64,000 nucleotides of DNA from NCBI GenBank assembly GCA_009760885.1, contig CM019701.1, forward strand, positions 12,235,963 to 12,299,962. Direction: 5' to 3'. Shown in pieces: positions 2,613 through 46,200 of this stretch. A program made the position numbers and the translations under genes. The first letter of the stretch is position 1, and each line of letters begins with the position of its first letter. Origin of the DNA: Achatina immaculata. Its lineage: Eukaryota; Mollusca; Gastropoda; Stylommatophora; Achatinidae. The notes beneath the pieces were generated by a model, which did no database searches, was not told where the DNA came from, and saw only the letters and a program-made list of their open reading frames with translations.

Positions 2613-3093
2613 ATGATCAGAGTTACCTCCTCTCTGACACAAGCTAGAACTAACCTATGGTCAGAGTTACCTCCTCTCTGACACAAGCTAGAACTAACCT
2701 ATGGTCAGAGTTACCTCCTCTCTGAAACAAGCTAGAACTAACCTATGGTCAGAGTTACCTCTTCTCTGATACAAGCTAGAACTAACCTGTGGTCAGAATT
2801 ACCTCTTCTCTGACACAAGCTAGAACTAACCCATGGTCAGAGTTACCTCCTCTCTGACACAAGCTAGAACTAACCTATGGTCAGAGTTACCTCCTCTCTG
2901 AAACAAGCTAGAACTAACCTATGGTCAGAGTTACCTCTTCTCTGATACAAGCTAAAACTAACCTGTGGTCAGAATTACCTCTTCTCTGACACAAGCTAGA
3001 ACTAACCTATGGTCAGAGTTATCTCCTCTCTGACACAAGCTAGAACTAACCTATGGTCAGAGTTACCTCCTCTCTGACACAAGCTAGAACTAA
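2613..3093. repeat. 44-bp minisatellite abutting the receptor stop codon, about 11 copies
   Basis: The unit contains GGTCAGAGTTACCTCCTCTC and AAGCTAGAACTAACCTAT at a strict 44-bp step. The last unit runs straight into the final exon: on the minus strand each unit repeats ATAGGTTAG, the bases around the stop codon. Confidence 0.93.
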
Positions 3094-3263
3094 CCTATGT
3101 AGCTATGTTTTGTCTCCGTAGTGAAGGAGTGAATGAATGATTTCCGAAAGCGATTGGCCCGTTTTCGGATGTTACCTAGGAAGGGCGCAGTTGACAGAGT
3201 GTAGATGACCGGGTTTGTGGCTGAGTTTAGAGGCAATATGAAGACAGCTATCCAGGCGTATAC
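3090..3263 (-). CDS. exon X: transmembrane helix 7, C-terminal tail and stop
   Basis: This 174-bp terminal exon starts after CTTGCAG. It encodes [20 protein letters not shown] then [20 protein letters not shown] and [17 protein letters not shown], then TAG. NPVIY is the class A NPxxY motif. The cytoplasmic tail is short (about 35 residues), basic then Ser/Thr-rich. A 44-bp minisatellite begins at the stop codon. Confidence 0.96.
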   Translation of the reverse strand, partial: VYAWIAVFILPLNSATNPVIYTLSTAPFLGNIRKRANRFRKSFIHSFTTETKHSYIG

Positions 3264-11042: not shown

Positions 11043-14000
11043 AAAAGTAAAGCAATAAATAGAGACTAGATGTTACTAATTTAAAAACAAATCTAGCAGT
11101 CCATCTACTGGTCCTTAATTAGGTCCATGGAGCCCAGGTTAAGAACCACTAGTGTAAAGGGAGTTTACTTGTACAGTTAACAAGTAAATCCTTCGACAGT
11201 TACTGCCCTTGTGTTTACAAATTAGATATATGTGTGTCACTTATCTTGAAATCACATACAAAGTGGCAACACCGGATCTTCATACAATCCTTTTTACTAA
11301 TCTTCATAGAGTCCTTCTTACTTTGCCTCCTCTTAAGTCTCGGACACGCCAAACGATGACCAAGAAGTTGCCACACAGAGCAATGATGCCTAGAACCCAG
11401 ATACTGACACGCAACACGTAGTTGGACATAAGATCCTCGCAGGAAGAGAACTCGTCAGGTTTAGGCAAGCAGTCAACCGTGTCGGGTGTCAGACAGCAGA
11501 ACCTGTAGCTGTCAGTTACTCTGTAAAAGAAAACAAATTCTTCGTGTCAGAAGCTGGACACCTTTGTCGTCAACATGATCACATCAAGGCAAAAATGTAC
11601 TCAACATCAGGGGAAGCAATTAACTGAGTCAAGGGAAACGATCATTAAAAAGAGAGAAATTGGCTGATCAAGTCAAGGGGAGGAAATGTAAAGAATCAAA
11701 TCGTACTCTTCTTCTGTCAGCTATCATTCAGTCGCTGTTATTCAGCGTCAGTATAGCACTTGTATTACAAACATACAAAATACTGAATAAGGACTGAATA
11801 CTACTTCATATACAGATAGTCCTCGTTTTCCGAGGGGATTTTATTTCGATGGTCGCGTTGGAAAACGAAAATTGACGTAAATCGAATATCATAAGATTGT
11901 GCGTATCTAGTACTTATTGCCAGTAGACAGTCATCGTATATCAAAGTGTACATGAAGGGTTTTGATTTTACTGACAGTGCTTTATTTAAGATTTTGTAGT
12001 CAACATTAAGTAGTGAGATGGGTCTCTAGTTTGTTATCCGAGCTTTGTCGGACACGAAGACCAAGAATGCAGCAGCAACAACAGAAACATTAGCACGCGT
12101 ACATACTTTCTCAGAGATTTCGCTAAGTACGCCCATGATAAGAACAGCTGAACAGCAATCCTGTTCTTAGACGAGGAAAAAGCCTTTGACAGAGTGTCCT
12201 ATTCCTTCCTTCACAAAACTCTCCTCAGTAGCAATGAGGGGAGCTACTTCAGAGACTGGATTACGATTATATAATCCTCACCACAAAGTCAGATCCTATT
12301 CAACCGCACCTTAACAAACACATCTAACTAGATCTGTCCAGGAAGGGGTGCCCTCTGTCCCCACTTCTGTACGTGTTAACTTTGGAGCCACTCTTGGAAA
12401 AGATCAGACACGACAGTCTCATCACGGGAACTTTCATCCCTGGGGCAGGAGAGAAGGAGTTGATCGCTCACGCGGACGACACGGTCTTCTTTCCTACAAA
12501 CATCTCCTCAATAAATCACATTTTAGACACTTTCAAAGAATTCGAGAAGGCATTGGCGCTAAAATAAACATGCTAAAGTCACAAATCTTGGGTCTGGGGA
12601 AATGGACCAATAAGTCAGATTTCCCTTTCAACCTAACACACGTTAACAGCATGAACATATATGGGATACTCTACACAGCAATACCATTACAAACAAACAA
12701 AACTGGATGGACAAACATTAACAATAGATTTAAATCATACAAAACAACAACAACGATCTTGGGTAGGATCGTAATAGCCAACATTTCGCCACATCTTAAC
12801 TGATCTACATCTTCCCCCTGCCCTCAATAGCATTCAAAGAAATCAACAAACTAGTCAGAAAATTCATATTTAGGAACACAAGATTCAACAAAAAGCACTA
12901 ATGCAAGACAAGAAACCAGGCGGCATCATACTAAAAAACATTACAACAAAAATACAAGCACTAAGAATCAAATACCCAGGAAGCGTTATCAACGAGTCAC
13001 AAAAACGCGCACTAGCGGACTATTATGTAGGACTTAGACTATCCAACCTTTGTAGAATCATCAATACACAGCCTTACTATTTTGGAACACAGCCCCCTCT
13101 TCTACAGACATGTATACAAAACTTAACAAAACACAAACACTTAATACAGAAGAAAACTTCTGATTTTTGCAGACAACTAGTCACGGAACAAGAACCACGG
13201 CTACAATTTACGAGTTTTATAACTCCTAAGTTATGTAGGGAAAACAAACAATAAAACGGAAGATCACATATTTTTAGATGCAAAATAATATCACGAATGT
13301 TAAAACTTCTTACAAGTAGAATAGAAACAGAAACAAAACAATATCACGAATGTTAAAACTTCTCACAAGTAGAATAGAAACAGAAATAAAACAATATCAC
13401 GAATGTTAAAACTTCTTACAAGTAGAATAGAAACAGAAATAAAACAATATCACGAATGTTAAAACTTCTCACAAGTAGACTAGAAACAGAAACAAAACAA
13501 TATCACGAATGTTAAAACTTCTCACAAGTAGAATAGAAACAGAAACAAAACAATATCACGAATGTTAAAACTTCTTACAAGTAGAATAGAAACAGAAACA
13601 AAACAATATCACGAATGTTAAAACTTCTCACAAGTAGAATAGAAACAGAAATAAAACAATATCACGAATGTTAAAACTTCTCACAAGTAGAATAGAAACA
13701 GAAACAAAACAATATCACGAATGTTAAATCTTCTTACAAGTAGAATAGAAACAGAAATAAAACAATATCACGAATGTTAAAACTTCTCACAAGTAGAATA
13801 GAAACAGAAACAAAACAATATCACGAATGTTAAAACTTCTCACAAGTAGAATAGAAACAAAAATAAAACAATATCACGAATGTTAAAACTTCTCACAAGT
13901 AGAATAGAAACAGAAACAAAACAATATCACGAATGTTAAAACTTCTCACACGTAGAATAGAAACAGAAACAAAACAATATCACGAATGTTAAAACTTCTC

Positions 14001-17000
14001 ACAAGTAGAATAGAAACAGAAATAAAACAATATCACGAATGTTAAAACTTCTCACAAGTAGAATAGAAACAGAAATAAAACAATAGCACGAATGTTAAAA
14101 CTTCTCACAAGTAGAATAGAAACAGAAATAAAACAATATCACGAATGTTAAATCTTCTCACAAGTAGAATAGAAACAGAAAAAAACAATATCACGAATGT
14201 TAAAACTTCTCACAAGTAGAATAGAAACAGAAATAAAACAATATCACGAATGTTAAATCTTCTCACAAGTAGAATAGAAACAGAAATAAAACAATATCAC
14301 GAATGTTAAAACTTCTCACAAGTAGAATAGAAACAGAAACAAAACAATATCACGAATGTTAAAACTTCTTACAAGTAGAATAGAAACAGAAACAAAACAA
14401 TATCACGAATGTTAAAACTTCTCACAAGTAGAATAGAAACAGAAATAAAACAATATCACGAATGTTAAAACTTCTCACAAGTAGAATAGAAACAGAAACA
14501 AAACAATATCACGAATGTTAAATCTTCTTACAAGTAGAATAGAAACAGAAATAAAACAATATCACGAATGTTAAAACTTCTCACAAGTAGAATAGAAACA
14601 GAAATAAAACAATATCACGAATGTTAAAACTTCTCACAAGTAGAATAGAAACAGAAACAAAACAATATCACGAATGTTAAAACTTCTCACACGTAGAATA
14701 GAAACAGAAACAAAACAATATCACGAATGTTAAAACTTCTCACAAGTAGAATAGAAACAGAAATAAAACAATGTCACGAATGTTAAAACTTCTCACAAGT
14801 AGAATAGAAACAGAAATAAAACAATAGCACGAATGTTAAAACTTCTCACAAGTAGAATAGAAACAGAAATAAAACAATATCACGAATGTTAAATCTTCTC
14901 ACAAGTAGAATAGAAACAGAAATAAAACAATATCACGAATGTTAAAACTTCTCACAAGTAGAATAGAAACAGAAATAAAACAATATCACGAATGTTAAAT
15001 CTTCTCACAAGTAGAATAGAAACAGAAATAAAACAATATCACGAATGTTAAAACTTCTCACAAGTAGAATAGAAACAGAAACAAAACAATATCACGAATG
15101 TTAAAACTTCTTACAAGTAGAATAGAAACAGAAACAAAACAATATCACGAATGTTAAAACTTCTCACAAGTAGAATAGAAACAGAAATAAAACAATATCA
15201 CGAATGTTAAAACTTCTCACAAGTAGAATAGAAACAGAAACAAAACAATATCACGAATGTTAAATCTTCTTACAAGTAGAATAGAAACAGAAATAAAACA
15301 ATATCACGAATGTTAAAACTTCTCACAAGTAGAATAGAAACAGAAATAAAACAATATCACGAATGTTAAAACTTCTCACAAGTAGAATAGAAACAGAAAC
15401 AAAACAATATCACGAATGTTAAAACTTCTTACAAGTAGAATAGAAACAGAAATAAAACAATATCACGAATGTTAAAACTTCTCACAAGTAGAATAGAAAC
15501 AGAAATAAAACAATATCACGAATGTTAAAACTTTTCACAAGTAGAATAGAAACAGAAATAAAACAATATCACGAATGTTAAAACTTCTTACAAGTAGAAT
15601 AGAAACAGAAACAAAACAATATCACGAATGTTAAAACTTCTCACAAGTAGAATAGAAACAGAAACAAAACAATATCACCAGCACTAAAACTTCTCATAAA
15701 TAAAATAGAAACAGAAACGAAGAAGAAAACAAAAATAGCAATCATGCTAAACACAATCCCCAACACAGCAAAAGACACAAATGATCAGTTTTGCTGTCTG
15801 ATTTTAGATGTCTCGTATGAGCTTGTAGAAATAAAGGAAGATACGACGAAAGAATATTTACTGATAGCAGCGTTGTGTTTATTTTGGAACAAAACTTGAA
15901 GAAATTGTACCCTAAACATCCCCCCCCCATAAAAATGAAACCTTAATATTACCGCAAAACTACGACATGGCACGAGTGTTTATCACGCTACGCGTCTGTT
16001 TCAGATACAAATCCTTTGGGCCCTTCTGGGGCAAATCCTGTCAAATTATTCTTTACTCTGAAGCATCTTATGGTTTTATTTATCCGACAGTAAAAGATAA
16101 AAGAACATTATCTCTCTGGTATCCTTTCATCTTATCTCTTTCCAGGTCACGCCAACCTCCCAGAAGGAGCAGCGATAGCCATCAGTCATGATGACTTTCA
16201 TCCACCTAAATCTGCTCAAATATTTGTAACAATGATGTAATGTGTAAATCCATGCTACAAGAACTTAATATTGAAGAAGGCTGGCTAGTAAAGAGGGTTA
16301 AACAGAGAAAACGTAAATATTTTGGACACATATTAAACGTCATGATAATCTAGAGAAAACCGTCTTGGAAGGGTACAAAATGGGAAAAAGAAAGAGAGGA
16401 AGACCAAGATGAAGATGGCTGCAAGACATAGTTGATGATCTGCAAATGAATGCACTAGCAGCAGGCCATTTTGCTCACAACCGAGAGGCCTACAGGAGTG
16501 CTGTTAGGGAGGCAAACTTCCGCAAGGGACATGCAAATGAGAGAATGAATGATGTAATGTGTGTGTGTGTGTGTGTGTGTGCGCGCGCATGCACGATTTT
16601 TTTTCAGATACACTCCCATCAAAATTGTATCTCATTAGTATACACCTTATTCAAGACAGTATGTTTATTTCAAATACATTTAACGTGTAACCACACACAC
16701 ATATATATATATATGTACATATATGTACAATTCCATGTAAAGCCCTCCAAGTAACATATTAAAAATTTGTTGAAAATTCTCACATCATCATCATCATCAT
16801 GTGCCGTGCCGACTGGCGTTGGCTATTATGCTTCTCCAGAGTACGCGATCCTTCATGCAGGCCATCAGCTCAGTTGGTGATCTCCTCTCACACCATCTCG
16901 TCAGACTGTCCAGTATCATTTCTCTTGGTCTTCCTCTTGATCTTCTTCCTTCTATTTTTCCTGTTATAATATTTTCAATGCCCCCTCTTCTCATTGCATG

Positions 17001-20000: not shown

Positions 20001-23000
20001 AGGATGTCCGAAAGCCGGGACTTTTCTGTATCCATACACTCAACGACTGATGCAAATAAAAGACCAGATTATAGTTCACACTTTCACACATTGATCTCAG
20101 CCAGCCTGATAAACAAAAGCGGGTAAAAGAATTTTTATCTACCCTGTCAGCATATATTTGATTGGTAAGAAAATATGGCTATGTTGAAAAAAGATTTCTT
20201 AAGGGGCTATAAATCAAAGTCATTCTTTGAGAATATATTACAGGTTATTAGTTTCAGGTATTATGGAAGAGTATTCCAGAAGTGAGCAGCAGAGAAAGCA
20301 AAGCTTACAATGCATTTTTTTGTAGAAAGGCCATAAAACTATAATCCTTCACATAATCAGCGTAATATATAATTACAATATATTCATATACGAACGTTTC
20401 GTCTTAGAAGCGTATTGTAGTTGAACTAAATACCGTATTTAACATAAAAAATGTAATACTTACAACGTGCTTAACCGAGGTAGTCCAAGAAACACATTTT
20501 CCCCAATATCTTTAATTTTGTTTCTGGAGAGATCTCTACAAGATGAGACAAAATGTTGGGATATTCAAGGTAGTAAATACCAATGTTTCTTTTAGTTTTA
20601 TTTTTTTAATCAAAACTTTCTGGGAACATTCCCATATACAATGGCTGACAGAATACTTGTACTCCTTCACCAATTTTACCTTAATTTTAAAAAAGGCAAC
20701 ATTTGCCCGAACCATTTACAATGTCAAAATCATGTTTCCTCCTCCTCCTACTCTTCCTCATTCCCCCCCCCCCCCACACCAAGTCTGGCAATTACAACAC
20801 ATTATCTTACATCTTAGATCCTTCCCGTGCTGTTAAACGTCACATAGGGCCCGCATGGTAGTTCGACAAAATGTCCTGTCTTCAGCGAGTTTTTCAATAT
20901 CATCAAGGGATGTTATGCCCACTGACCTGGTTTCTCTTAACAATGTCCTCTTTAGAATTTCACGTGGTCAACACTTTATACCAAACAACAATACTGAGCG
21001 AAAATCTCTTATTGGACTGGTCTGTCCACTGAGAAGGGGGTCCTAGCCAGTGCATCCCATCGGGGGCCCCGATGACTCCCTCTGATTAAAAGGGGGCGTG
21101 GATAGCTTAACCTGTTGTAAGGAGGCTTTGTAGTAGATGAAAACAGAATGGCTTTCTAACAGAGTAAACAGGAGGGAAGAGAGAGGGGGAGAGAGGGGAG
21201 GGAGAGAGAGAGGGAGAGGGAGAGAGAGACAGAGAGAGGGAGAGAGAGGGAGAGCGAGGCACAGAGAGAGGCAGAGAGAGGGACAGAGAGAGGGACAGAG
21301 AGACAGAGAGAGGGACAGAGAGAGAGGGGCAGAGAGAGGGAGAGAGAGAGAGGGGCAGAGAGAGGGAGAGAGAGAGAGCGAGACACAGAGAGAGACAGAG
21401 ACAGAGAGTTTTGAACTATCCTACACAATTTCTCTCTGGGCGCGTTAACAATGTCAGTTCGATCCAGTGGCTGTCCATCTGTGACGATGACAGAGCCAGG
21501 CAACCTGTCAGTTCTATCATTTCCCTGGATGCCCGTGTCCCAGAGACACAGATAAAGGTGTCTCTGCGAATTTCTGATAAGACTCAAGCCATCCTCTGTG
21601 GTCCTTACTTGAAGCAAGTTTGACCATCCCTGGTCTAGTTGCTATATTCACCCCTGATCTAGTTATTATGTTCACCCCTAATTAAGTTATTATGTTCACC
21701 CCTGATCTAGTTATTATGTTCACCCCCTGATCTAGTTATTATGTTCACCCCCTGATCTAGTTATTATGTTCACCCCCTGATCTAGTTATTATGTTCACCC
21801 CCTGATCTAGTTATTATGTTCACCCCCTGATCTAGTTATTATGTTCACCCCCTGATCTAGTTATTATGTTCACCCCCTGATCTAGTTATTATGTTCACCC
21901 CCTGATCTAGTTATTACGTTCACCCCCTGATCTAGTTATTATGTTCACCCCCTGATCTAGTTATTATGTTCACCCCCTGATCTAGTTATTATGTTCACCC
22001 CCTGATCTAGTTATTATGTTCACCCCCTGATCTAGTTATTACGTTCACCCCCTGATCTAGTTATTATGCTCACCCCTGATCTAGTTATTAAGTTTGGAAA
22101 TGTTACATACATGGACACAACATTAACCAGCGTGTTGAAGGCTCCATTTTCTATGGCTGTGATTCTGTTTCCAGACAAGTCCCTGTAGACAGAGACAGAA
22201 AAGAGACAAGTGAGGTTTTATCTCGTGCAGTTTAGTCATTTAAATTACCTAAAGGATGCGGATAGTCAGAAAAATATGAAGACCATCGAAGAATATAAAA
22301 TAAAGCTGTGGAATAAAGTATGTAAAGTAAAGGCAACTCTATTATGTCATGGATGCCCTCATGGGATATGGTGTTAGTGTCCGTGTTTCCTTGACTAGTC
22401 GGCACACTGGAACAGTGGTTCTCATACTCTTACAGAATTTTGGCACGCTTGACAACGTAAGTTTCTGTCACGGCTCACCGGCGTAAATGATGCGTAAATG
22501 TGTGCTATTTTACTGTTTATATTACGTCGAGTTAGGCGTAATTTCAACGAATTTGATTTTTGTTTTTGTGTAAGTCTCTGGTTTACTTCCGGCAGACCAG
22601 TGTGCTGGGGCATATCCTTTGAAAAACGCTGCACTAGATGGTGATGTGGTCAGCATCAAGCCTAGCTGCCTTTCTTTTCCAAGCTGCAGAAGAAGCTGGA
22701 CATACCTTTCCATAACTGAGGGACAGGTACACCTTCGGTCTGATTCGTGTGGAATAAAATAAAGCTAATAATCGTGCAGGGGCTCTATCGTTCCAGTCAT
22801 CTTGTCTCCACAGAAGCAGTTAATGGAAGTAAAGCTAAAAGGTAAATCCCACTGTCCATGTCATTAAGGTACTTTTGGGTGTCCGGTGTTCGCGTCGTAT
22901 CTACGAGACCATCGGCACATGAAAGCGTGACGTAGCCAGCATAACGTCTGGCCGCATCTATCTGCCCAGATTTCTCTCATTCTTAGAGGCAAGTAATGAA

Positions 23001-26000
23001 AGTAACAGGCGTAACACCAGCAGTAGTGCTGGAGGCAAGAGTATTCACTGTAAATGTAATAATGTAGAGGTATTACCAGCAACAGCAAAGTAGTAGTAGA
23101 AGTAGCAGTCAGGGTGACAGCAGTAGTAACACAATTATCAGATGTAATTACATTAATCATTGTTGTACTCGCGATTTAATCATTGTTATACTCGCGACTT
23201 ATTCATCACCTTGTAGTAATAGTAACATTTTCAACTGTTATGAGTTTCTACTGTGTACTTACAGGGTGGCATTCAATTTATATTGTGTACTTACAGAGTA
23301 GCAATCTGTCTAAGACCTTTGAAAATATTTTTGTACAGGTAGGTCAATCTTTGGTTGCTTAAATCTCTGTTAAAAAGAAAAGAGAATCATTTTAAAAAGA
23401 ACTACAAAACTAAACTAGCGAAAGTAGCAACTAGTAGTCTCGAAGTATATTTAGCAATTTTTGTTTGTTTGCTTGTGAGAATGCCTTCATCGTCTTCTTC
23501 TTCTTTGTCATTTGCTCAGACACTAATGCCATCATTTCTTGTAAATGCTACAGTTTGTCTCTACTTTCGCCACCACCACCACCACCACCACCACCACCAC
23601 CACCACCACCACCATCACCGCCACCACCACCATGACTATCACCACCATCACCATCACCACCATCACCATCACCACCATCACCACCACCACCATCACCACC
23701 ACCACCACCATCACAACCATCACCATCACCACCACCACCACTATCACCACCACCACCACCACCACCACCACCACCACCATCATCAACACCACCACCACCA
23801 TCACCATCACCACCACCACCATCACCATCACCACCACTATCACCATCACCACCACTATCACCATCACCATCACCATCATCACCATCACCACCACCATCAC
23901 CACCATCACCATCACCAACACCGTCACCACCACCACCACCATCACCATCACCACCTTCACCACCACCATCACCACCATCACCACCACCACCACCATCACC
24001 ACCATCATCATCACCACCACCATCACCACCACCACCATCACCACCACCACCACCACCACCACAATCACCTCCACCACCACCACCACCACCACCATCACCA
24101 CCACCACCATTACCATCACCACCATCACCACCACCACCATCACCACCACCACCATCACCACCATCATCATCACCACCACCATCACCACCACCATCACCAC
24201 CACCACCACCACCACCATCACCACCACCACCATTACCATCACCACCATCACCACCACCACCATCACCACCATCACCACCACCATTACCATCATCATCATC
24301 ATCATAATCATCATCATCATACATTTTCTCTTCTGTAGAGAGTTGAGCTCTTAGTGGGTTGTGTAGCTGACATCACTGGAGGACATGTTGGGCTGTTCAT
24401 GTCTCTCTCATCACAGACACAACGTCTATTGAGACCATTTTATTGTCTCAATTTATGATGGTATGTATGATGTAGACAAAGAATATTACAATGCCATAAC
24501 AATTGGAAGTTATGAAATATCAGAGATTAGATATGCTGATGATACGGTGTCCACAACACAAAAAGGAATGGAAAAACTAATTATGTCAGTCCGTAAGAAC
24601 AGCGAAGAGCAGAATCTCTATCTTAATGCGAAGAAAACTAAATTGATGACAACTGACAAAACAAACAAGGCAGCTGAAATATATACCAATGAGGGAAAAT
24701 TGGAAGAAGTGGAGAGTTTTGAATATCTTGGATCACTACTAACTAATAATGGAGATACAGTGAGAGAAATTAAAAGGAGGACATCTATCGCTCTTCAGAA
24801 AGTAAAACAACTAAAGAATCTGTGGAGAGGAACAGACAGAACTACAAAAATAAGATTTTTAAGGGCATGCATCTTTCCCATCGCAACATATGCCCGTGAG
24901 ACGTGGACACTTAACAAAACAGCTGAGAAACACATAAATGCCTTTGAATGTAAATGCTGCAGAAGAGTTCTCCAAATATCGTGGACAGAAAAAAGAACAA
25001 ATATATCTATACTACAAGAGCTTAATATTGAAGAAGGCTGGCTAGTAAAAAGGATTAAAGAGAGAAAACTTAAAATATTTTGGACACATTAAACGACATG
25101 ATAATTTAGAGAAGACCGTATTGGAAGGATACATAATGGGAAAAAGAAAAAGAGGAAGACCAAAACTAAGATGGCTGCAAGACATCGTTGACGATCTGGA
25201 AATGGATGCAGCAGCAGCAGGCCATCTTGCTCACAACCGGGAGGCCTACAGGAGTGCTGTTTGGGAGGCAAAGTTCCGCAAGGGACATGCAAATGAATGA
25301 ATGAATATGATGTCTCAGTTTGTGTTATAGATGATGTCACAGTTTGTGGTGCTACAGGTGATGACTTAGCATGCATATGCCTGTACTCTTGTAGATTATA
25401 ACTTGATCTTGGAAACATCCTGGACTGGACAAAGAAGGATAAAAAGTCCAGCGGACACAAACAAAAACATCCGCATACGACGAAACAAAGAACAAACTAA
25501 AAGCTGTGGATAAAGAAAAATATATAAAAGCAGCTTTTAGATGCAAAACATTTACTTTTATTGGTATTACAGAGACAAGGACTTCCATTTTTTAAATGTT
25601 TTCCAGCAAATAAAAAGTTTAATCATATTACTTGTATGTTGGATTATTACTGTTAGTTTCTATATTCTCCTCTTTCCTCATTGGTTTTTTTTCTAAACTT
25701 CATTTCACCTGAAAGTCATATCCAGTTTTACCGCGGTTATCGTGACATCGCTATTCGTTTCACATTACAGGCCTTAAAACCCCCCTAAAGAATAACAACA
25801 GCTATTATCAGAAGTTTAGAGACATTTTCTAAAGATTTCTGTCTTCAGATTTTTACGTGCTCATTTGTATGTCTCCTAGATAACCCTAGACTTTTATTTT
25901 GTTTCGTTGCCTTGTTTTGGTTCTATTATTTCAAGATTTATAGCGCGCAAGAGCCCACGTGGGGGAATCCTGTCACACAAAACAACAAAATAATGAAAGG

Positions 26001-29245: not shown

Positions 29246-29637
29246 AACATAGCCATCATCTCATTTACATGAACCCGAATTTTCTAATCACTGTTAGCGT
29301 TATCATCATCAGAAGTCAGGCTACCTATTTCAAACCACATTATCAACATTTCCTGCCACACAAGTTACATCGTTTGGTATTCTAGTACACTATTGCCTTC
29401 TCTGCTCTACCTCATCTCTCTTTTCCTAATTCTGTAGAAAATAGACAGAACACAGACATACAGATATGATTTAAGTCATACGTTACCACTTACAAGAAGG
29501 CCAACTGCCACATTGTGTCAAAAACATGGACCGGGATTTCCGATAGCGAGTTATTGCTCAGATCTCTGCGTCAACAAAAACAAATAAAAGCAGATATAAA
29601 AACAACACACAACAAACAGAAGAGATAGGGTGATATA

Positions 29638-29693
<56 letters not shown>

Positions 29694-31199
29694 ACACACA
29701 TACATACATATTAACCCTTAACAAACAGAATAGATCGACTGATACATAACAACAACAACAACAACAAACAGAAGAGATAAATTGAAATATTTTTCTTTTT
29801 ATATAAAATCTTAACTAGTAGAAACTAATCTTTTCATTAATCAATGGTGACAAATTCCAAAGCTCTGGAGAGATTCTGGGATTTCAGCCATACAGAGTGA
29901 GCGCATTAGGACAGTAAATTAAACTACAAATATCTTCTACTTCTTCTTCTTCTTTTTTCCTTCTTCTTCCTTTTCTTCTTCTTCTTTTTTCATTCTTCTT
30001 CTTCTTCTTTTTTCCTTCTTCTTCTTCTTCTTCTTCTTGAGCTTTCGCAGCCATTAAGGCTCATTGCTGCAGATAAATTTCGCCTCCATTCCTCTCTATT
30101 CATAATCTTCTCTCTCCAGCTGGTGACACCAATTTCTTTTATATCATCTTTTATGTTCTCTTTCCATCTCTGTCTTGATCTACCTCTTAGTCTTGTTTCC
30201 CTCATCTCTTGTGCATACATACTTTTCTTTTGTCTGTTCTCTTCCACTCTTTATAAATGGCCCAACCAGCGTAGTCTGTTCAGTTTCAAGACATTTATAA
30301 TTCGTTGGGATTTAAATAAGCTGTTCAGTTCAGTGTTCTTTCTAGCTCTCCATTCTCCACTGCTGGTATCCTTTATGGGCCCAAAGATTCTTTTTTAGGA
30401 TCTTGTTCTCAAAGATCTGCAATTGTTGTTCATCTTTCTTTGTTGTACTCCATGTTTCTGATCCATACATGACGGCTGGTCTCATTATAGTTTTGTAGAC
30501 TGTTATTTTGGTGTTTTGAGACATGATTTTGGATTTTAACAGGTGTTGCAAGGCAAAGTATACTTTATTCCCTATGTGTGCTCTGATTTTAATTTCCTTC
30601 CTTACTGTGTTGCTTCTGTTGAAGGTTGTGTCTAGATATTTGTATGTTTCTGGTTTCCTAATAATCATCTCTCCAACATTTATATAATCGTGATCATTCT
30701 GCCTCTGGTCTCTGTCTTATCTTGACTAATGGTCAAGCCCAGTTTTAGTGCCACATCTGTCAGGTGTATGCAGGTATTGATGATTTCTTACATAGTTTCC
30801 CCCACTAATCGATGTCATCAGCGTATCCTAGTACTGTATCTTGTTCGTCTGTATGGCTTTCTTTTTTCACCCTTTCTGATTACCTTTTCTAGTACTAGGT
30901 TGAATAGTTGTTGGCAGAAATGCAGATGAAGCCATTGACAGCAGTTATTGAGGAAATACGCTGGCGATGGTTGGGACATGTGCTCCGGATAACTGACAAC
31001 TCACTACCAAAAATAGCACTAAGATGGACACCACAGGGGAACAGAAGTAAGGGTAGACCAAAAGAGACATGGAGAAGAACAACAGAAAGAATGTTGAGAA
31101 TAGAGGACTCACCTGGGCAAGAGCAGAAAAAAAGGCGAAGGACAGGCTTTTGTGGAAAACCTTTGCGGAAGCCCCATGTGCCCTGGGCACTTACGGTTC

Positions 31200-31278: not shown

Positions 31279-34200
31279 AAGAGAGAGAGGTTGAATAGTA
31301 ATGGATATAATGTATCACCTCTTTTTAAACCAGTTCTTATATAGAAGGGTTCTGACTTTCTTCCTTTATATATTACCATATTTTATATATCCTCCATGAA
31401 CATTTTGGTCAGATTGATTAATTTTTTAGGTATCTCAAATTCTCTACATCATCTATGGAGAAATACACTAAAGTTGCCTGATAAGGACAAGGTAATCAAC
31501 AGACAAGCTGTTTTTCTCGAAGCTGAACACGTCAGGTACTCACTTCTGAGTCAGCTGATGAATGCGTGTTACATGCAGCGAATACACAGCTTTACAGATG
31601 ATAAGACAAGTCGGTCATTATCAATTGGCATGTCTGCCTCGCTTTACAAATAATTTGTTTTACTGATTGGACTCAGAATACATGAATTAATAGGCTGATA
31701 GATAAACCTTTTAACTGTATTAGGCTTGCAGATAAAGTTTAGTTTTGTGCTATCCTTACAGATTTTCGGATACATCATGTTACCTCATTGAGTTTATTTA
31801 TACGTAACTTTATCCTAGTACATTTACAGTTACGTGACTTTATCCTAGTGCACTTACAGATACGTGACTTTATCCTAGTACACTTACATATATATGACTT
31901 TATCCTAGTGCACTTACAGATACGTGACTTTATCCTAGTGCACTTACAGATACGTGACTTTATCCTAGTACACTTACATATATATGACTTTATCCTAGCG
32001 CACTTACAGATACGTGACTTTACCCTAGTGCACTTACAGATACGTGACTTTATCGTAGTATACTTACAGATACGTGACTTTATCGTAGTACACTTACATA
32101 TATATGACTTTATCCTAGTGCACTTACAGATACGTGACTTTACCCTAGTGCACTTACAGATACGTGACTTTATCCTAGTACACTTACATATATATGACTT
32201 TATCCTAGTACACTTACATATATATGACTTTATCCTAGTGCACTTACAGATACGTGACTTTATCGTAGTATACTTACAGATACGTGACTTTGTCGTAGTA
32301 TACTCATAGATACGTGACTTTATCCTAGTGCACTTACAGATACGTGACTTTATCCTAGTGCACTTACAGATACGTGACTTTATCCTAGTACACTTACATA
32401 TATATGACTTTATCCTAGTGCACTTATAGATACGTGACTTTACCCTAGTGCACTTACAGATACGTGACTTTGTCGTAGTATACTCACAGATACGTGACTT
32501 TATCGTAGTATACTTACAGATACGTGACTTTATCGTAGTATACTCACAGATACGTGACTTTATCGTAGTATACTCACAGATACGTGACTTTACCCTAGTG
32601 CACTTACAGATACGTGACTTTGTCGTAGTATACTCACAGATACGTGACTTTATCGTAGTATACTTACAGATACGTGACTTTATCGTAGTATACTCACAGA
32701 TACGTGACTTTATCGTAGTATACTCACAGATACGTGACTTTATCGTAGTACTGCTTGGAAAAAGTCGTATTTGTCAGATTCAACATGTTGCCTCGAAAAC
32801 GTCTGAAAAAAATGTACAGTTAAACATGACATTAAAATGTCAGACTTTCACTTAAAATGGTAGGACGACAATCTTGTCAAACTTTCTTTCAAAGTGGTAC
32901 TGTGGAAATCTTGTTAAACTTTCATTCAAAGTGGTATGGCGGCAATCTTGTTAATTTTCATTCAGAGTGGTAGGGCGGCAATCTTGTTAACTTTCATTCA
33001 GAGTGTTAGGACGGCAATCTTGTTAAACTTTCATTCAAAGTGGTAGGACGTCAATCGTGTAAAACTTTGATTCAGAGTGGTAGGACGGCAATCTTGTCAA
33101 ACTTTGATTCAGAGTAGTAGGACGCCAATCTTGTCAAACTTTGATTCAGAGTAGTAGGACGGCAATCTTGTCAAACTTTGATTCAGAGTAGTAGGACGGC
33201 AATCTTGTCAAACTTTGATTCAGAGTGGTGGGACGGCAATCTTTCTTGTTAAACTGTAGCAGATAACACAGTTACATGATTAACATTACGGCTACATTTT
33301 CCGCTTCATCATCATCATCATTATCAGTTGCTGTTCTGGTAGACGTTGTACATCTTGCTCCTTTACAGTTCTCCGTCCTCAGTATTACTGTGCCAATGTG
33401 ATAAGATCGTCCATGGTTTTTTTCCGTTTCTTCCTGTGCCTCTCTCTCACATTTACTTTCCTGTTGTTATAATGTTTTCAAGCTGTCCCCTTCTCATTAT
33501 AATGTCAGTTGCTTAAGGATTTGTCGAATTATCTTCCCTTTCTTACACCTGCTTGTGTTAGATATTCCCTACTTGTCGTCTCAGCTGTCCATGGGACTCA
33601 ACGTTTTTCTGAAAAACCACGTCTCTGATGCCTCTGGTAATCTTTGCTTTGATCTGTTTATTGGCCGTGACTCACTTTATTAGAGTGGGGCAGACTGAAG
33701 TTTTATACTGCACATGTTTCAAATATCCAATTGATATGTAAACATGTTTCAAATATCCAAGTGATTTGTAAACATGTTTCAAATATCCAAGTGATTTGTA
33801 AACATGTTTCAAATATCCAAATGATTTGTAAACATGTTTCAAATATCCAAGCGAGTTGTATATAGTCAATCATTTGCATGCCCCTTGCGGAACTTTGGCT
33901 CCCTAACAGCACTCCTGTAGGCCTCTCGGTTGTGAGCAGATGCCCTGCTGCTGATGCATTCATTTCCAGATCATCAACTATGTCTTACAACTATCTTCGC
34001 CTTTGTAAACATGTTTCATATAACCAAATGATATGTAAACATGTTTCAAATATCTAAGCGAATTGTAAACATGTTTCAAATATCCAAGTTATTTGTCAAC
34101 ATGTTTCAAATATCTAAGCGATCTGTAAACATGTTTCAAATATCTAAGCGATCTGTAAACATGTTTCAAATATCTAAGCGATCTGTAAACATGTTTCAAA

Positions 34201-37200
34201 TATCTAAGCGATCTGTAAACATGTTTCAAATATCTAAGCGATCTGTAAACATGTTTCAAATATCTAAGCGATCTGTAAACATGTTTCAAATATCTAAGCG
34301 ATCTGTAAACATGTTTCAAATGTCTAAGCGATCTGTAAACATGTTTCAAATAAATAAGCTATCTGTAAACATGTTTCAAATATCTAAGCTATCTGTAAAC
34401 ATGTTTCAAATATCTAAGCTATCTGTAAACATGTTTTAAATATCTAAGCTATCTGTAAACATGTTTCAAATATCTAAGCTATCTGTAAACATGTTTCAAA
34501 TATCCAAGTGTAGTGTCAAAGCCAACGTTGGAAGTTCCACAAACATCAACACCTGTCCTCTTATAAGCTGTCTTCTAAGATAATAAGTTCTCAATTATAA
34601 TTATATTATGTGCATGAAATAACATTAAGAATAGCAGCTGCTGTACAATAAAAATATGAAAAAAATAGCAGTTAATGTGACATGACAATTTGGATAACAA
34701 TAGAATATATAGTTTACAATATGGCGAAGATGAAAGGCTACAGGAGACAGGGAAAGACAAACATCTTATTTAAAAGATTGTTGTTAGTGATCTCCACGTG
34801 ACTGTACTTCCTCATTTCTTTGATGTAGATGTCTGTTCAGCGACCTTCACCTAACTGTACTCCTTCATTTCTTTGTTGTAGATGTCTGTTCAGCGACCTT
34901 CACCTAACTGTACTCCTTCATTTCTTTGTTGTAGATGTCTGTTCAGCGACCTTCACCTAACTGTACTCCTTCATTTCTTTGTTGTAGATGTCTGTTCAGC
35001 GACCTTCACCTAACTGTACTCCCTCGTTTCTTTGTTGTAGATGTCTGTTCAGCGACCTTCACCTAACTGTACTCCCTCATTTCTTTGTTGTAGATGTCTG
35101 TTCAGCGACCTTCACCTAACTGTACTCCCTCGTTTCTTTGTTGTAGATGTCTGTTCAGCGACCTTCACCTAACTGTACTCCCTCATTTCTTTGTTGTAGA
35201 TGTCTGTTCAGCGACCTTCACCTAACTGTACTCCCTCGTTTCTTTGTTGTAGATGTCTGTTCAGCGACCTTCACCTAACTGTACTCCCTCATTTCTTTGT
35301 TGTAGATGTCTGTTCAGCGACCTTCACGTAACTGTACTCCTTCATTTCTTTGTTGTAGATGTCTGTTCAGCGACCATCACGTGAATGTACTCCTTCATTT
35401 CTTTGTCGCAGATGTTGCAGTAAAGATCTTGAAATCAAGAAAAATAATTGCAGGTGTTGGTAAACTTATGGTGGCTTTACTAACTTTGTGGCTCTGATCT
35501 GCCAGAAATGTATCTACAGGTAGTTATGGATGACCTTGACTACTGTATCATTTTTTGAAACAGCAATCTACGAGCACGTGATCTCCGCGTGATTCATTTT
35601 CCATTAAGGATAATAAATCCCTGGAAACATTGAAAGTTTTAGGCCACGTCTCAGCTGTCGTAGCAGTTTGAGAGGGCGCTCTGGCTTCCAAGTCTGTTAG
35701 GTTCCCTGGTTTTTTGTTTTCTCGCTTTCTTGTCTCATTTTCCTTCTTTTTTCCATTGAGTTTTTGTGGTGATTGCCAGTTTCAGTAACTTCTAATCTTC
35801 TGTGGCATATTCAGAAATTTACTTGTATTTCCAAGCTGCACAACCAGTCCCCCTTATATTACTGATTATATTGAGACACACAGCTCTGTGCAGTCAGATA
35901 ACAAAGATACCTATACAATATTAGACAATGGGAATAACCATGCAGCAGGAAATAATGGGGAAAGTTTATGTTTAACCCAAGAATTGGAATATCTGACTAT
36001 GGAGCAGCAGCAAATGCCTGGACACAACATGGGTTTACCTACAACTTGGAAAAATGTTCCATCTCCATGAGTGTAGGGACTGCCACAAGTAGGCGAAGTT
36101 CACAGTTCATGACGTCGTCTTTACAATAACAGTTCGGTGACTCGACGGGGCACGCATATCCTGGAGATGGCGGTTTGTGGAGAAAGAGGGAGTAGGACTT
36201 TTGTCAGAGAATTTTAAAAATTAAGATAGGCAGATCAGTAACTAGGCAAAAATGGATGGATGGATAAATTTATGGATGGTAATCGGATGGGCAATGGATG
36301 GATGGATGGATGAGTGGGTTGTTGAGTATATGGATGGATAGATCGATGGTTGGATGGGAATATGGATGGTTGAGTGGAAGAGTGGGCTGTTGTGTAAATG
36401 GAAGGAAGGATGGTTGGATGAATGGATGGATGGATGGATGGATAAAACACAGAGAAAAACATAAAAGACATCGCCGTCAAGGAATGTATAAACTATATAT
36501 GTTTTTACTATGTGTTTATATTAATTTAACAATTTAAGCAGCTAAAATATTATTATCCATATGTTATTGACAAACTCTGGGCTTTACAAATATGCAAGCA
36601 AATGAAAGTTTTAAACAGCTGTATTTCTATAGAAAGATGAATATTTAAAAATTTCAACAGCTTTATCTCTTAAGTAAATTAAGATTGTCCTGCGATAAAC
36701 AGTACAGATCTCGTAATCGCTGGTCAAAGGGAGGTAACAAAGAAATTTATGAGGATAATCTCACCACAGTTGTCCTCGTCTGATTGTGTGGGGACGCAGT
36801 CAATGACACCGTCACAGATTCTGCTAACATTGATACAGTAACCTCCCCTACATTTATATTCTCCGTCACGGCAGGCATGTATGGCTAAGGACAGGACAGC
36901 GTGGATGTGGAAGTTAAATGATAAAAGTCAAGTGGTCATTTAAAATGTATGAACCTTTGTTTTTTGTTTTTTTTTGAGGTTAAAAAAAAGGTAAAAGTAA
37001 TCCTCTCATGCCTTAGAGGCACATAGGGATATGATGTTAGTGCCCATATTTTCCTTGACCTGTCAGCACACTAGAGGGTGATGTGGTTAGTATCACACCA
37101 GGCCGCCTTTCCTTCCCCCAACTCCAGAAGAAGTCGGGTACCCATTTCTACAGCTGGGTGACTGGGGTGCCTCCGGCCGGATTCGAACCCCCGACCTTCG

Positions 37201-40200
37201 TCATGAGAGACCAGTGCACTAACCACTTCGCCACTCAGACACCCTTGTTTTTTTTTTAAACAGCAACAATATTTGTAGGGTAATATCTTCTTTTTCTTTT
37301 TCTTTCTTAAAACGAAAGTAGGAACAGCTTTACTGTTTAATCATCACACAGTGATAACCTTTCGGTTCATATCTTAACTGCACACAAGCATACAGGATAA
37401 AGAAACAGGCAAAGAAGATAACATGAAAATTCACATGAATGATAGGAAATGAATAAGAACTGCAAAAAAAAAAAAAAATAGCAGAAAAAGCTGGAAAAGG
37501 AGGGGGTGCAGGGCACTTAGCAGTGACTTGCAAGAAACTGTGTCTGGGAGTGTTTTGTGGGGTTAAGCTGTAAGCAGGAACATTACCACAGTGTTCTAGT
37601 TAATTAATAAAGCTGTTTCTACTTTTGTTTTAAATGTGTTGAACATTTTTGTTATCACAGCTTTACTGCGGTGGCTTCGTGTATATTTATATATACTGTC
37701 TATTACCTAAAAACTATTCGTGTGTTCCAAAATATTTGGAACAATAGCCTCCTTGGTAGTTCATTCGTTTGCATGTCCCTTGCGGAACTTTGCCTCCTAA
37801 ACAGCACTCCTGTAGGCCTCTCGGTTGTGAGCAAGATGTCCTGCTGCTGATGCATCAGTTTGCAGATCATCACCGATGTCTTGCAGCCATCTTCGCCTTG
37901 GTATTCCTCTCTTTCTTTTTCCCATTATGTATCCTTCCTGGTGTAATCTTTAGATTATCATGACGTTTAATGTGTCCAAAATATTTAAGTTTTCTCTCTT
38001 TAATCTTCTTTACTAGCCAGCCTTCTTCAATATTATGTTCTTGTAGTATAGATATATTTGTTCTTTTTTGTGTCCATGATATTTGAAGAACTCTTCTGTA
38101 CCATTTACATTCAAAGGCATTTACGTGTTTCTCAGCTGTTTTGTTAAGTGTCCAGGTCTCACAGGCATATGTTGTGATGGGAAAGATGCATGCCCTTACA
38201 AATCTTATTTTTGTAGTTCTGTCTGTTCCTCTCCACAAATTCGTTATGATAGTTCATAGAAGTCTTTAAAATTATACATCGTGATAGACTGATTTTCCAT
38301 ACTTTCTGAACTGACAATTTCTGGAGATTGAACTTCATATTCAAAATCGATGGAGATATAAAATATGTATAACTTCATATATCACATGTACGGAACACAC
38401 AGTAAGCTGCTCCCAATCCGACTCGATATTATACCTCAATATTTTCACCGTAACGTCTGCATAAAAAACCTCAACCATCTCGCAGATCCAATGAGAAAGA
38501 AGAAGAAGAAGAATATCAGTTTCGTCAGCATGCCAGAATAACAACAAAATAGCAACTATTCAAACACAGCTACAACATCAACAACTTGAACCTACAACAG
38601 TTGAACAGGTGAGAGTTGTCAGAACAACCCAGGCGAGAGTTACTGCGGTCATCGTAACACACCATCCCCAGGTCAACACACTGGCCGTTGTTACAGGTAA
38701 ACTCGTCCACCCTGCAGGCTCGGCGCTCTGTAATTACAGAAGATGATGTTGATGTGGTTGTGATGATTAGGATGTACTTGTTGTTGATGTTCATCTTAAA
38801 CATAAAAGTCAGGACGATCTTGTTTCTCATTTCTGTGTAGCTCTCTCTCTCTCTCTCTCTCTTTCTCTCAGTAAGACATGCAGCACGTATTACAAATAAG
38901 GACAACCATCTTGATATTCTACCCCTCAAGAAGAGATTCTTTTCAACAAGGCCAAGTTAATTCATAAAGTTCCATCGCACAATGCTCCGCCCTATCTGTG
39001 GTCGTTGTTCAAATCCAACCCAAAACACAGTCAACGATTAAGTAATTGTGTTCTTCCAAATCCGAGGCTTGACGTCTTTAAGAAAAACTTCTCTTACTCA
39101 GCTGCCCACCTTTGGAATGCCCTACCAATTCACGTAAAACTTATAAGTAGTATTTGTTCTTATAACTTTAAACTTTGTCAACATCTGTTTGATATGGACT
39201 ATATGCCTCCTTAAGCATAGTTTAAAGTAGTTTAAAGTATGTCTTAAGTGTTTATTTTTTTAATACTGCTTTTCTATAAATTTGTTAGATTTGAATACAT
39301 GTAAGAATGTAAGTTTATTTCATGTTGTTGCATAAATTAGAGTGTAGAGTGTATGGACATGAGATAAGTTTATTATTTATTTATGTAATCATTTAATGTG
39401 TAGTCATGATTATTATTCTCATTAACAAATGCTGAATGACTGTGACTGAGTGAAAGCTGTATGATGAAGAGCAGAATGTCAGACGGGCCTGCGTGCCCAA
39501 TTCTTAGCCCTTTGAAAATAAAGTATGTTCGTTACTTCTCTCTTTCTCTTTCTCTCTCTGTCTCTCTCTCTCTCTCTCTATACCAGTATATGGGAGGCAA
39601 TCGTGTATATTATTGTTTGGGGACAAATAGTGCCCTTGGCTTGCAGGCATTTTTGTACATCCGGGTTAGCCATCTTGTACTTCCGGGGTCACATGTCTAG
39701 AAGCTTCGAGAACGGCTACGAGCGACGGCAGAATTTTTTTTTGGGCCGAGTGAGTGAGTGTTCGTCTGACTGTGATCTAGAGCAGCGGTGTGTGGTTGGT
39801 TGTGGGCATCATGTATTCTGGTTGTGTGTGGTTGGTTGTGGGCATCATGTATTCTGGTTGTGTGTGGTTGGTTGTGGGCATCATGTAGTCTGGTTGTGTG
39901 TAATTGGTTGTGGGCATCATGTATTCTGGTTGTGTGTGGTTGGTTGTGGGCATCATGTATTTAGGTTGTGTGTATTTGGTTATCGGCGTCATGTATTCTG
40001 GTTGTGTAATTGGTTGTGGGCATCATGTATTCTGGTTGTGTGTAGTTGGTTGTGGGCATCATGTATTCTGGTTGTGTGTAGTTGGTTGTGGGCATCATGT
40101 ATTCTGGTTGTGTGTAGTTGGTTGTGGACATCATATATTCTGGTTGTGTGTAGTTGGTTGTGGGCATCATGTATTCTGGTTGTGTTTAGTTGGTTGTGGA

Positions 40201-43200: not shown

Positions 43201-46200
43201 TTTTCACGTCTCATTGTTGTGAAGTATCAACAATTTGTGAGTACTAGAAGACTGAGTGCTAATTGCACATTTTGTTCCTCTTGTCGGGGTCTGTGTTAAG
43301 GACACAGTGAGTTGAGTTCACGGCTGAGATATCGCAGGCCGGTTACATGTTCATTATTGCATATTATCGTCAGGAGGCCTGTGTTATTTTAGCGCTGAAT
43401 CTTCATCCACATTGATTCGTTTATCGTTGCTCTCTCATATCACTGATGAATGTTTCTTGTCGTATGCTGGTTGTCGTTACCAATTGTGGCTTATGTTGTG
43501 GTTTTGTTATGATTGATGTCTAGTCTGGTGATTAAACTTATGCATTACTTGATTATAGACTTATTGATTTATATTGCACATGTTATATTTGTTGAGTATG
43601 TTGAGTGTCTGATGCTACAGTAGTATTCATTACATTAAGGGAAGGGGAATCTGATGCTACAGAAGTATTCACTACATTAAGGGAAGGGGAATCTGATGCT
43701 ACAGTAGTATTCATTACATTAAGGGAAGGGGAATCTGATGCTACAAAAGTATTCATTACATTAAGGGAAGGGGAATCTGATGCTACAAAAGTATTCACTA
43801 CATTAAGGGAAGGGGAATCTGATGCTACAGAAGTATTCACTACATTAAGGGAAGGGGAATCTGGGTAACGTAGTGAGAGTGACAGAATTACTCCTCTAAC
43901 TACAGCTGTACATAGTAAAGGGGACTGTTTTGGTCTGTTATTCATTTTCCCACATTTACTTTGGTCACACTTGATATCTTGTAACTTGCAAGCAATCAAG
44001 CTTTCCATACCTCAGTGATACAAGAGAATAGCCAAGAAAGAAACAAGAGAAGCGGGTAAAGATGAAGAGAGAAAGAAAAAACCATCTACAGCGACACAAG
44101 ATGATGATGAAAACGGACAACATATCTTACCACAACCACGTTCGTCGCTTCCGTCGGGACAGTCCCTGAAGTGATCGCACCAGAAACCTTCCTGCAGGCA
44201 CTGACCTGACCGGCACTTCCTGGTGCCAGCTGGGCAGTCAAACTCATCTACGTGATGTAAACCAGACTCCAGACAAATTTTGAAGATTAAAAATCGATGA
44301 AAAGCGATAATGAGGATAATGTGATTGGTATGATGATGCTTACGTTGGAGGTAACGACACTGATTACGGAGATAACGTCGAAAATGAGGAAGATGTTGAT
44401 ACTAATTCTTACATCTTACACTCTTCCCGTGCTGTCAGACGTCACACAGGGCTCTCACTGTGTCTCACCATGAGTCTCTATTCTTGGCGAGCTTCTCAAT
44501 CTTATCAAGGGATTTGATGCCAATCATTTCTGCTTCTCTTGTCAGTGTTCTCTTTAGGCTCTCTCGAAGTCGCCCTCTTTTTTCTTTTTCCAGATGTTTC
44601 CCATTTGATGGCTTGCTTTGTGATTCTCTGATTGGTACTTCTCATCATGTGACCTTCATATTCCCTCTTTTCTTGATCACTGCTGAGAATTTTTGTAGCA
44701 TGCTCAATTTTCTTATCTTTGCTTTAGTCTTAAATTCATTCCGTTGTATACAGATTATTTTTCTTAAACATTTTTTTCCAATGCATCCAATTTACTCTGC
44801 ATTTCTTAGGTAGTTTTTCAGCTTTGGTATGCATACATAAGGATGAATATTACATTTGAGTTGATTACTCTAAGCTTTACTCTTGTGTTTAGGAGTTTTG
44901 ATTTTCATATTTTCTTTCAATTCGTAAAGGCCAATGTTGCCTTTTTTATTTCTAACTTCTTTTTTCATGTTCTCTTCCTGGTCTGTGTTACTTCTGAGAT
45001 AAATAAAATGGTTTACTTCTTCTATTGCTGTTCCTCCAAGATAAACTGATACTTTCTTTCTGTCTTGCCTGGCCAGATTCTTTATTATTTTTGTCTCTTC
45101 ATTGTTGATCTTAACTCCTGCTATGCCAGTCGTTGAATGCCGGGTATCTGTTTTTGTTTTCCTGGCATCGTTCCGTGGAAATGCGGAAATGACACTAATT
45201 ACGACTATGATAATTATGGTGGAATGATAGTTGGATGCTGATACTGATGGTGTATGCTGATAATGATAGTGGATGCTGATAATGATAGTTGGATGCTGAT
45301 AATGATAGTGGATGCTGATAATGATAGTTGGATGCTGATAATGATAGTGCATGCTGATAATGATAGTGGATGCTGATAATGATAGTGTATGCTGATAATG
45401 ATAGTTGGATGCTGATAATGATAGTGTATGCTGATAATGATAGTTGGATGCTGATAATGATAGTTGGATGCTGATAATGATAGTGGATGCTGATAATGAT
45501 AGTTGGATGCTGATAATGATAGTGGATGCTGATAATGATAGTTGGATGCTGATAATGATAGTGCATGCTGATAATGATAGTGGATGCTGATAATGATAGT
45601 GTATGCTGATAATGATAGTTGGATGCTGATACTGATGGTTCATGCTGATAATGATAGTGGATGCTGATAATGATAGTGGATGCTGATAATGATAGTGGAT
45701 GCTGATAACGATGAAGATGACAAGATAGCGCATGCGCTTCTTGGGCCCGATGAAAGCCATTTTACTATTAACTCTTTCATACCAAAACAACATTATCAGA
45801 GTTGGTGATCTTGATTTACGTGAAAGTAAAAGTAAAGGTCTGAGTCTGAATAAAAAGAAGACTGAAGTGATGGTCATCTCAAAGAAAAGAATAACACCAA
45901 AATGTAGCATTACCATCTATGGCACAGAACTGAAACAAGTTGATAGATGTAAGTACTTAGGAACGATTATAACAGCTGGTGGGAAATGTCACAACGAAAT
46001 AAAAAGCAGACGTACCCAGGCCAAGTCAGCATTCAACAAACATCTTGTGCAACAGATCCATATTAATGGAAACAAGATTCTGAGTACTTAAATGTTACAT
46101 CGAGCCAATTTTGTTTTATGGATGTGAAGCACTGTCTATGAATAAGAGAGTACAGCAAGAAATTTAGGCCATGGAAATGTGGTTCATAAGAAGGATGTTG

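What the first reader, a model, noticed from the sequence alone, without database searches (positions are those of the whole stretch)
31786..32802. About 32 tandem copies of a 5' splice site: a 30-bp minisatellite grown out of an LRR exon boundary
On the minus strand the unit is the last 17 bases of LRR exon K (coding YDKVTYL) plus GTAAGT or GTGAGT. The genuine donor is the first unit, followed by some 31 more exon-end/donor pairs spaced 30 bp. Such an array could act as a sink for U1 snRNP or allow a ladder of alternative donors. In-frame TAA after each donor means that use of later sites would truncate the receptor.
Basis: partly seen in the sequence, partly recalled or inferred. Interest (0 to 1): 0.8.

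Follow-up and report, generated by a model that had tools for sequence, protein, structure and literature searches.

The report
Splice-donor minisatellite grown from an exon
In a land-snail-like genome the end of one receptor-gene exon, together with its splice signal, has been copied about 32 times in a row, and the same thing has happened at a few other exons nearby, which makes these genes natural tests of how cells pick one correct splice site among many near-identical ones.

Summary
On the minus strand, 32 head-to-tail 30-bp units (32750-31791) begin inside exon K (32802-32728). The founder unit is the last 23 exon bases plus 7 intron bases; 28 of 32 units keep GTRAGT. Exon K is the first LRR of a GRL101-type receptor. 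Its end (YDKV/ITYL) is shared by Lymnaea, Physella, Candidula and Bradybaena, so the exon founded the array. Only unit 1 can give full-length receptor; use of a later donor retains a stop, which is the donor itself read in phase 2.

It is not unique. Exon-end donor arrays also occur in the neighbouring DENND3 gene (32 bp, about 116 units, about 100 donors), at two more exons of the same receptor (50 bp x10, 44 bp x11) and at one exon of its duplicate copy (29 bp x3). The duplicate's exon K has none. Of 63 acceptors tested, none has one.

Best reading: ordinary tandem-duplication turnover in minisatellite-rich introns (22% of local DNA), tolerated at donors because the first copy stays next to the exon; the other copies are decoys. 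A U1 sink or donor ladder is untested. A human precedent exists (IFI6/G1P3). No RNA data were available.

The parts
32728..32802 (-). Exon K: first leucine-rich repeat of a GRL101-type receptor, 75 nt, phase 2-2, (L)[24 protein letters not shown](L)
   Evidence: AG/GT boundaries and phase; aligned with homologues
31791..32750 (-). 32 x 30-bp array; founder unit = last 23 nt of exon K + 7 nt of intron; 28 of 32 units with GTRAGT
32721..32727 (-). Genuine donor GTGAGTA (unit 1), the one that keeps the reading frame open
32838..33243 (-). Unrelated 37-bp x 11 array ending 36 nt upstream of the exon K acceptor
36043..36160 (-). Preceding exon (LRRNT), phase 1-2
29494..29565 (-). Following exon L (second LRR, 72 nt)
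3095..3263 (-). Seventh-transmembrane exon; its end CATAG with donor GTTAGT recurs in the adjacent array
   Evidence: the end given was wrong and was corrected here
2613..3099 (-). 44-bp x 11 array with 11 GTTAGT donor-like sites at 44-nt steps
11276..11322 (-). 24-bp x 2 duplication starting at the donor of the first-transmembrane exon (GTAAGA / GTAAAA); possible nascent case, junction match only 11 of 16
23255..23300 (-). Donor of the fifth LRR exon (23295) with one further copy 32 nt downstream; possible nascent case
21628..22094 (-). 25-bp x 19 array starting 17 nt inside the intron after the sixth LRR exon; not seeded by the exon end (junction match 8 of 16)

Best explanation
The last 23 bases of exon K and its 5' splice site are the founder unit of a minisatellite. 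A short tandem duplication spanning the exon-intron junction was followed by expansion and partial homogenisation into 32 units. Because the duplicated tract extends downstream, the exon-proximal copy still sits at the right distance from the acceptor and the coding sequence is intact, so the change is nearly neutral. Splicing uses donor 1 (inferred from frame and conservation, and from exon definition); the other 27 intact donors are decoys that are normally ignored, and their use gives a premature stop. The same process has acted at other donors of this genome. Acceptors are spared because extra AGs or disruption of the branch point and pyrimidine tract are not tolerated there. Shown: anatomy, origin from the exon, recurrence. 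Inferred: donor 1 use, near-neutrality, reason for the asymmetry.
For: Exon end YDK(V/I)TYL in 4 of 4 other pulmonate proteins that cover it: Lymnaea P0002, Physella P0003, Candidula P0025, Bradybaena P0001; Bulinus P0006 and Bradybaena P0010 do not cover it, and more distant homologues in that alignment differ (for example DRLSYL in P0004). Units 2, 4, 7 and 9 are identical to the exon unit; distal units are derived, 18 of units 2-31 having TAC->TAG. The duplicate gene on C9 has exon K with no exon-end array. Second exon-end array in DENND3, identified by PF25570 and by homology of the exon end. Junction 16-mer re-found in the adjacent array: exon K 16/16, DENND3 16/16, 88-kb LDLa exon 15/16, TM7 13/16; of 4337 unrelated donor-array pairs none reaches 14 and 0.12% reach 13. 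Fifth case in the duplicate gene, 29 bp x 3. Two or more extra junction copies: donors 5 of 68, acceptors 0 of 63, exon interiors 0 of 65.
Against: No RNA data, so donor 1 use is not shown. Donors are not more often touched by arrays than uniform placement predicts (8 of 55 against 10.6), and random intron positions have two or more copies more often (210 of 1050), so those tests do not support a donor hotspot. GTRAGT is not clearly enriched among the 104 local array units (7 against 4.2 +- 2.1 in shuffles). Donor versus acceptor for the strictest count alone is p = 0.059. Neutrality itself was not tested.
Confidence: 0.8

Rival explanations
1. Regulatory donor array: the decoys lower receptor output by competing for U1 and sending part of the transcripts to stop-containing mRNA, and array length tunes expression.
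For: 28 of 32 donors intact; 22 of the 31 downstream units have GTAAGT where the genuine donor has GTGAGT. The later donors computed (2, 3, 5, 32) give an early stop. A human minisatellite is reported to supply alternative donors (passage in PMC4526556).
Against: Recurrence at unrelated exons and genes with different units argues for a general process. By inspection, donor positions are no more conserved than other unit positions (no formal test). The duplicate gene lacks it at this exon.
Confidence: 0.12
2. The exon captured the array: the repeat was intronic first and the exon end was replaced by a unit.
For: The exon unit and units 2, 4, 7, 9 are identical, as expected from conversion either way.
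Against: YDK(V/I)TYL ends this exon in four other pulmonate proteins, and the array-free duplicate exon ends KQYYDKITFL.
Confidence: 0.02
3. 5' splice sites are mutational hotspots for tandem duplication, for example through co-transcriptional or replication effects specific to donors, rather than just tolerated places.
For: Exon-facing array edges fall in the donor window (10 nt of exon, 20 of intron) 5 times against 0.83 expected, P 0.001; acceptors 0 against 0.85 (arrays of two or more copies; with four or more copies 3 against 0.59, P 0.02). Arrays lie within 100 nt of 14 of 55 donors against 3 of 53 acceptors. AGGTAAGT triples: 3433 matches genome-wide against 1685 for the mirrored word, 22 against 6 distinct loci in the first 68.6 Mb of contig C1 (p 0.0037).
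Against: Total array coverage at donors is not above uniform placement; unit motif not clearly enriched in 104 local arrays; the mirrored word is an imperfect background control and some matches are simple repeats; selection against acceptor-side arrays gives the same asymmetry.
Confidence: 0.2

Closest known systems
IFI6 (G1P3, 6-16) minisatellite, human; Turri, Cuin and Porter 1995, Nucleic Acids Res 23:1854
   Same: [quoted passage not shown] A later paper states that two downstream repeat units are used as donors, giving three mRNA species (passage in PMC4526556).
   Different: The primary paper was not held, so unit size and array length there were not checked. Here the units are 29-50 bp, later donors give stops or frame shifts in the cases computed, up to about 100 donors lie in a row, and several exons of two genes are affected.
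[quoted passage not shown] PMC2891723)
   Same: Tandem duplication of a splice-like junction in a gene (passages).
   Different: There one duplication of exonic sequence makes a new intron; here an existing donor is multiplied many times and no intron is gained.
Competing tandem 5' splice sites (for example DOK7 intron 4; PMC5585400)
   Same: Donors compete for one acceptor; SRSF1 and hnRNP A1 activate intron-proximal and intron-distal sites respectively (passages).
   Different: There two sites 11 nt apart; here 28 to about 100 near-identical sites.

Membership tests
Minisatellite | Head-to-tail array of about 10-100-bp units | tested here: met
   30 bp x 31.7 copies, 89% matches
Donor-supplying minisatellite (IFI6 type) | Units carry the genuine exon end and donor | tested here: met
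   Unit 1 is the exon end; 28 of 32 units GTRAGT
Donor-supplying minisatellite (IFI6 type) | More than one unit is used as donor in mRNA | not testable with these tools
   No transcript data held
GRL101-type (LDLa-LRR) G-protein-coupled receptor gene | LDLa repeats, LRRs and rhodopsin-type 7TM in one protein | tested here: met
   PF00057 8.7e-36, PF13855 2.7e-30, PF00001 7.9e-30 on the spliced model; homologues named GRL101-like
DENND3 gene (neighbouring case) | DENND3 TPR domain and homology along the protein | tested here: met
   PF25570 8.7e-19; 28 tblastn matches of Bradybaena P0121 in order
Regulatory poison-splicing element | Conservation of the element or of its donors under selection | tested here: inconclusive
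   By inspection donor positions are not specially conserved within the array; array absent from the duplicate exon; DNA of other species was not available

The most novel reading that the evidence does not exclude
Exon-end donor minisatellites are a recurrent class in this snail genome, possibly hundreds of loci, in which 5' splice sites seed tandem arrays. The spliceosome there must routinely pick the most upstream of dozens of near-identical donors, although the competitors all lie nearer the 3' splice site. That would make these genes a natural experiment on exon definition and 5' splice-site choice.
Probability: 0.5. Interest if true: 0.78.

Novelty: new variant of a known kind. Interest (0 to 1): 0.62.

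Why it matters
How one 5' splice site is chosen among equal candidates is usually studied with a few competing sites (recalled, not surveyed here). In this genome series of 3, 11, 28 and about 100 donors stand behind single exons, with a clear readout: only the first gives the conserved protein. RNA-seq of the species could show at once whether exon-proximal choice is strict and how it changes with copy number. The donor-versus-acceptor asymmetry also suggests which splice signals tolerate repeat growth, and so how minisatellites can enter coding genes.

Tried and rejected
Chance or composition: rejected, the exon-type unit occurs only in this array. Exon captured from the array: rejected by shared exon ends. 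A general donor signature of all local minisatellites: not supported. RNA structure hiding the later donors: predicted accessibility is near zero for units 1-31 alike. Donor-specific conservation within the array: none seen by inspection. The 57-bp array after the 74-kb LDLa exon as an exon-seeded case: not significant, 10 of 16. Single extra copies at DENND3 donors -51137 and -21075: weak, the second probably chance. A Bradybaena N-terminal gene model ending at exon K: one search, only Candidula P0025 returned. In one search, 12 of 68 donors, 2 of 63 acceptors and 3 of 65 exon interiors had at least one copy; I set aside four donors and both acceptors as the 1349-bp segmental duplication or a 951-nt resemblance between two neighbouring donors, leaving 8 donors against 0 acceptors (p 0.0065), of which the two DENND3 single copies are weak; the three interiors were not inspected. 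In one search three donor coordinates were 1-4 nt off (corrected), and its edge test reaches only 10 nt into exons, so exon K and DENND3 do not count in it. With all TRF rows instead of the best non-overlapping ones, one DENND3 acceptor has an array 13 nt away. The AGGTGAGT pattern test and the relaxed unit search did not complete. Passages of PMC8724738 and PMC1877881 were seen and not used.

Full report
What is there. The window is G000:C19:12235963-12299962 of a 1.65-Gb genome. Its minus strand carries most of a receptor gene with LDLa exons (phase 1-1), an LRRNT exon, 72-nt LRR exons (phase 2-2) and 7TM exons. In the window 23 exon matches were placed, two of them duplicates; all 23 acceptor sides read AG and 22 ends read GT, and the end of the TM7 exon, first misplaced at a stop codon, was corrected to a GT at 3095. 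With the flanks I count 29 exons, from about 88.4 kb down to 1.4 kb. The spliced model matches Ldl_recept_a, LRR_8 and 7tm_1. Its best relatives are gastropod proteins: Bradybaena 71%, Lymnaea 63%, Physella (named GRL101-like) 60%. This is therefore a land-snail-like gastropod; the species is not given.

The array. Exon K is 32802-32728. Thirty-two 30-bp units run from 32750 to 31791; the first has 23 exon bases and 7 intron bases. GTAAGT occurs in 22 units and GTGAGT in 6; the other four are ATAAGT, ATGAGT, GTAAAT and a degenerate end. Units 2, 4, 7 and 9 match the exon unit exactly and distal ones are derived; 18 of units 2-31 turn the second TAC into TAG. Units 2-6 and 7-11 are near-duplicate blocks, so expansion has included multi-unit steps.

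Reading frame. Exon K ends in phase 2, so GTRAGT reads xxG-TRA: the donor itself is the stop. Donors 2, 3, 5 and 32, the ones computed, leave the same first stop, and since unit 1 precedes every later donor this holds for all. Only donor 1 gives receptor. The stop comes automatically with a phase-2 consensus donor and is no sign of a special design.

Direction of origin. The exon end reads YYDKVTYL in Lymnaea and Physella, CYDKVTYL in Candidula and NYDKITYL in Bradybaena P0001; more distant homologues differ. A second GRL101 copy of the same genome (C9:13.79-13.82 Mb; L039-L041) has KQYYDKITFL at this exon and no exon-end array; only a 32-bp x 2.8 array begins about 12 nt inside its intron. 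The exon came first. Bradybaena also has two DENND3/GRL101 pairs by gene number and contig length, BsWGS_14120/14121 and 24236/24239, which fits the genome duplication reported for Stylommatophora (start of the abstract of PMC12328838 in a search listing).

It is not alone. In 264 kb (window plus 100 kb on each side) there are 104 arrays of 15-120-bp units with four or more copies, 22% of the DNA. I then asked which arrays touch exons. The neighbouring gene, DENND3, has an exon ending ...ISIPDCDL|N, with the IPD.DL core shared by most gastropod rows of the alignment, whose last 22 bases plus GTAAGTTATT are the first unit of a 32-bp x 116 array (L014:3487-7201); 99 GTRAGT were counted there, 102 with a looser motif. 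The first LDLa exon found (end at window coordinate 88254, in L021) runs into a 50-bp x 10 array with 8 donor-like sites, some units reading ATAAGT instead. The TM7 exon (end 3095) runs into a 44-bp x 11 array with 11 GTTAGT sites; that donor is supported by the homologous reading HSYVEDRT in P0010. In the C9 copy the LRR6 exon end TTAATGTTAAATTTAT|GTAAGTAGAATGT is present three times in tandem.

Tests. The junction 16-mer is found again in the adjacent array at 16, 16, 15 and 13 of 16 positions for exon K, DENND3, the 88-kb exon and TM7; of 4337 unrelated donor-array pairs none reaches 14 and 0.12% reach 13. A 24-mer copy test over 68 donors, 63 acceptors and 65 exon interiors of the three gene copies gave two or more extra copies at 5, 0 and 0; Fisher p is 0.059 for donors against acceptors and 0.0046 against acceptors plus interiors. 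Arrays of two or more copies lie within -10..+20 of 8 of 55 donors and 0 of 53 acceptors, p 0.006; one acceptor has an array at 13 nt if all TRF rows are used. Of the 8, three begin 14-18 nt inside the intron and are not exon-seeded. Within 100 nt the counts are 14 of 55 and 3 of 53. DENND3 boundaries were placed by a heuristic around tblastn hits and several are uncertain; two acceptors could not be placed.

Results for and against a hotspot. Uniform placement of the arrays would touch 10.6 donors and 10.4 acceptors on average: donors are not enriched, acceptors are strongly depleted. Random intron positions have two or more copies in 210 of 1050 cases. GTRAGT is not clearly enriched among all unit consensuses. 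For a hotspot: exon-facing edges pile up at donors (5 against 0.83), and genome-wide AGGTAAGT triples number 3433 against 1685 for the mirrored word, 22 against 6 distinct loci in the first 68.6 Mb of C1, the stretch that both capped listings cover (p 0.0037). The 22 loci correspond to about 32 per 100 Mb, so several hundred genome-wide by extrapolation; none of them was checked for lying at an exon, at least one is a simple repeat, and the mirrored word is an imperfect control.

How it works. A tandem duplication across a donor leaves the first copy where it was: same exon, same distance from the acceptor. A duplication across an acceptor puts new AGs upstream of the true one and disturbs the branch-point region. 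So repeats can grow into exons from the donor side more easily. This is inference from general splicing knowledge. With 28 or about 100 near-identical donors behind one exon, all nearer the next acceptor, productive splicing needs strict use of the exon-proximal site. [quoted passage not shown] In the one case of this kind that I found, IFI6, two downstream units are used besides the first (PMC4526556, passage). Donor use here was not observed.

Known or new. The kind is known from IFI6 (Turri et al. 1995, seen only as a citation and through later papers). Recurrence at several exons and genes of one genome, donor counts up to about 100, and donor-only placement did not appear in the listings of my searches; the library holds open-licence papers only.

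Noticed in passing
window 18661-18732 and 20464-20535; 58422-58538 and 59771-59887: Two exons of the receptor gene are present twice in near-identical segmental copies (about 1.8 kb apart for an LRR exon, 1349 bp for an LDLa exon): recent exon duplication or assembly artefact.
   Followed up: partly
window 13282-15717: A 53-bp x 46 array; on the minus strand its units read CTTGTGAGAAG or CTTGTAAGAAG, donor-like but not tied to a known exon end.
   Followed up: no
L040 about 2681-2911 (duplicate gene, fifth LRR exon): A decayed array of TTGTAAGTAGTAATCTCCAC-like units starts at the donor; looks like an old exon-end donor array, not counted.
   Followed up: partly
P0010 (Bradybaena BsWGS_14121): The syntenic Bradybaena gene model starts at an internal Met in exon L and lacks exon K and everything upstream; a repeat at the same place could have broken the gene prediction.
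   Followed up: partly
264 kb around the window: About 22% of the DNA is minisatellite (104 arrays of four or more copies); 14% of DENND3 and 26% of GRL101 intron bases.
   Followed up: yes
window 16800-17249, 30342-30716, 37870-38253, 45729-46091: Open frames on both strands that look like reverse-transcriptase fragments of retroelements (impression from reading only, no search).
   Followed up: no
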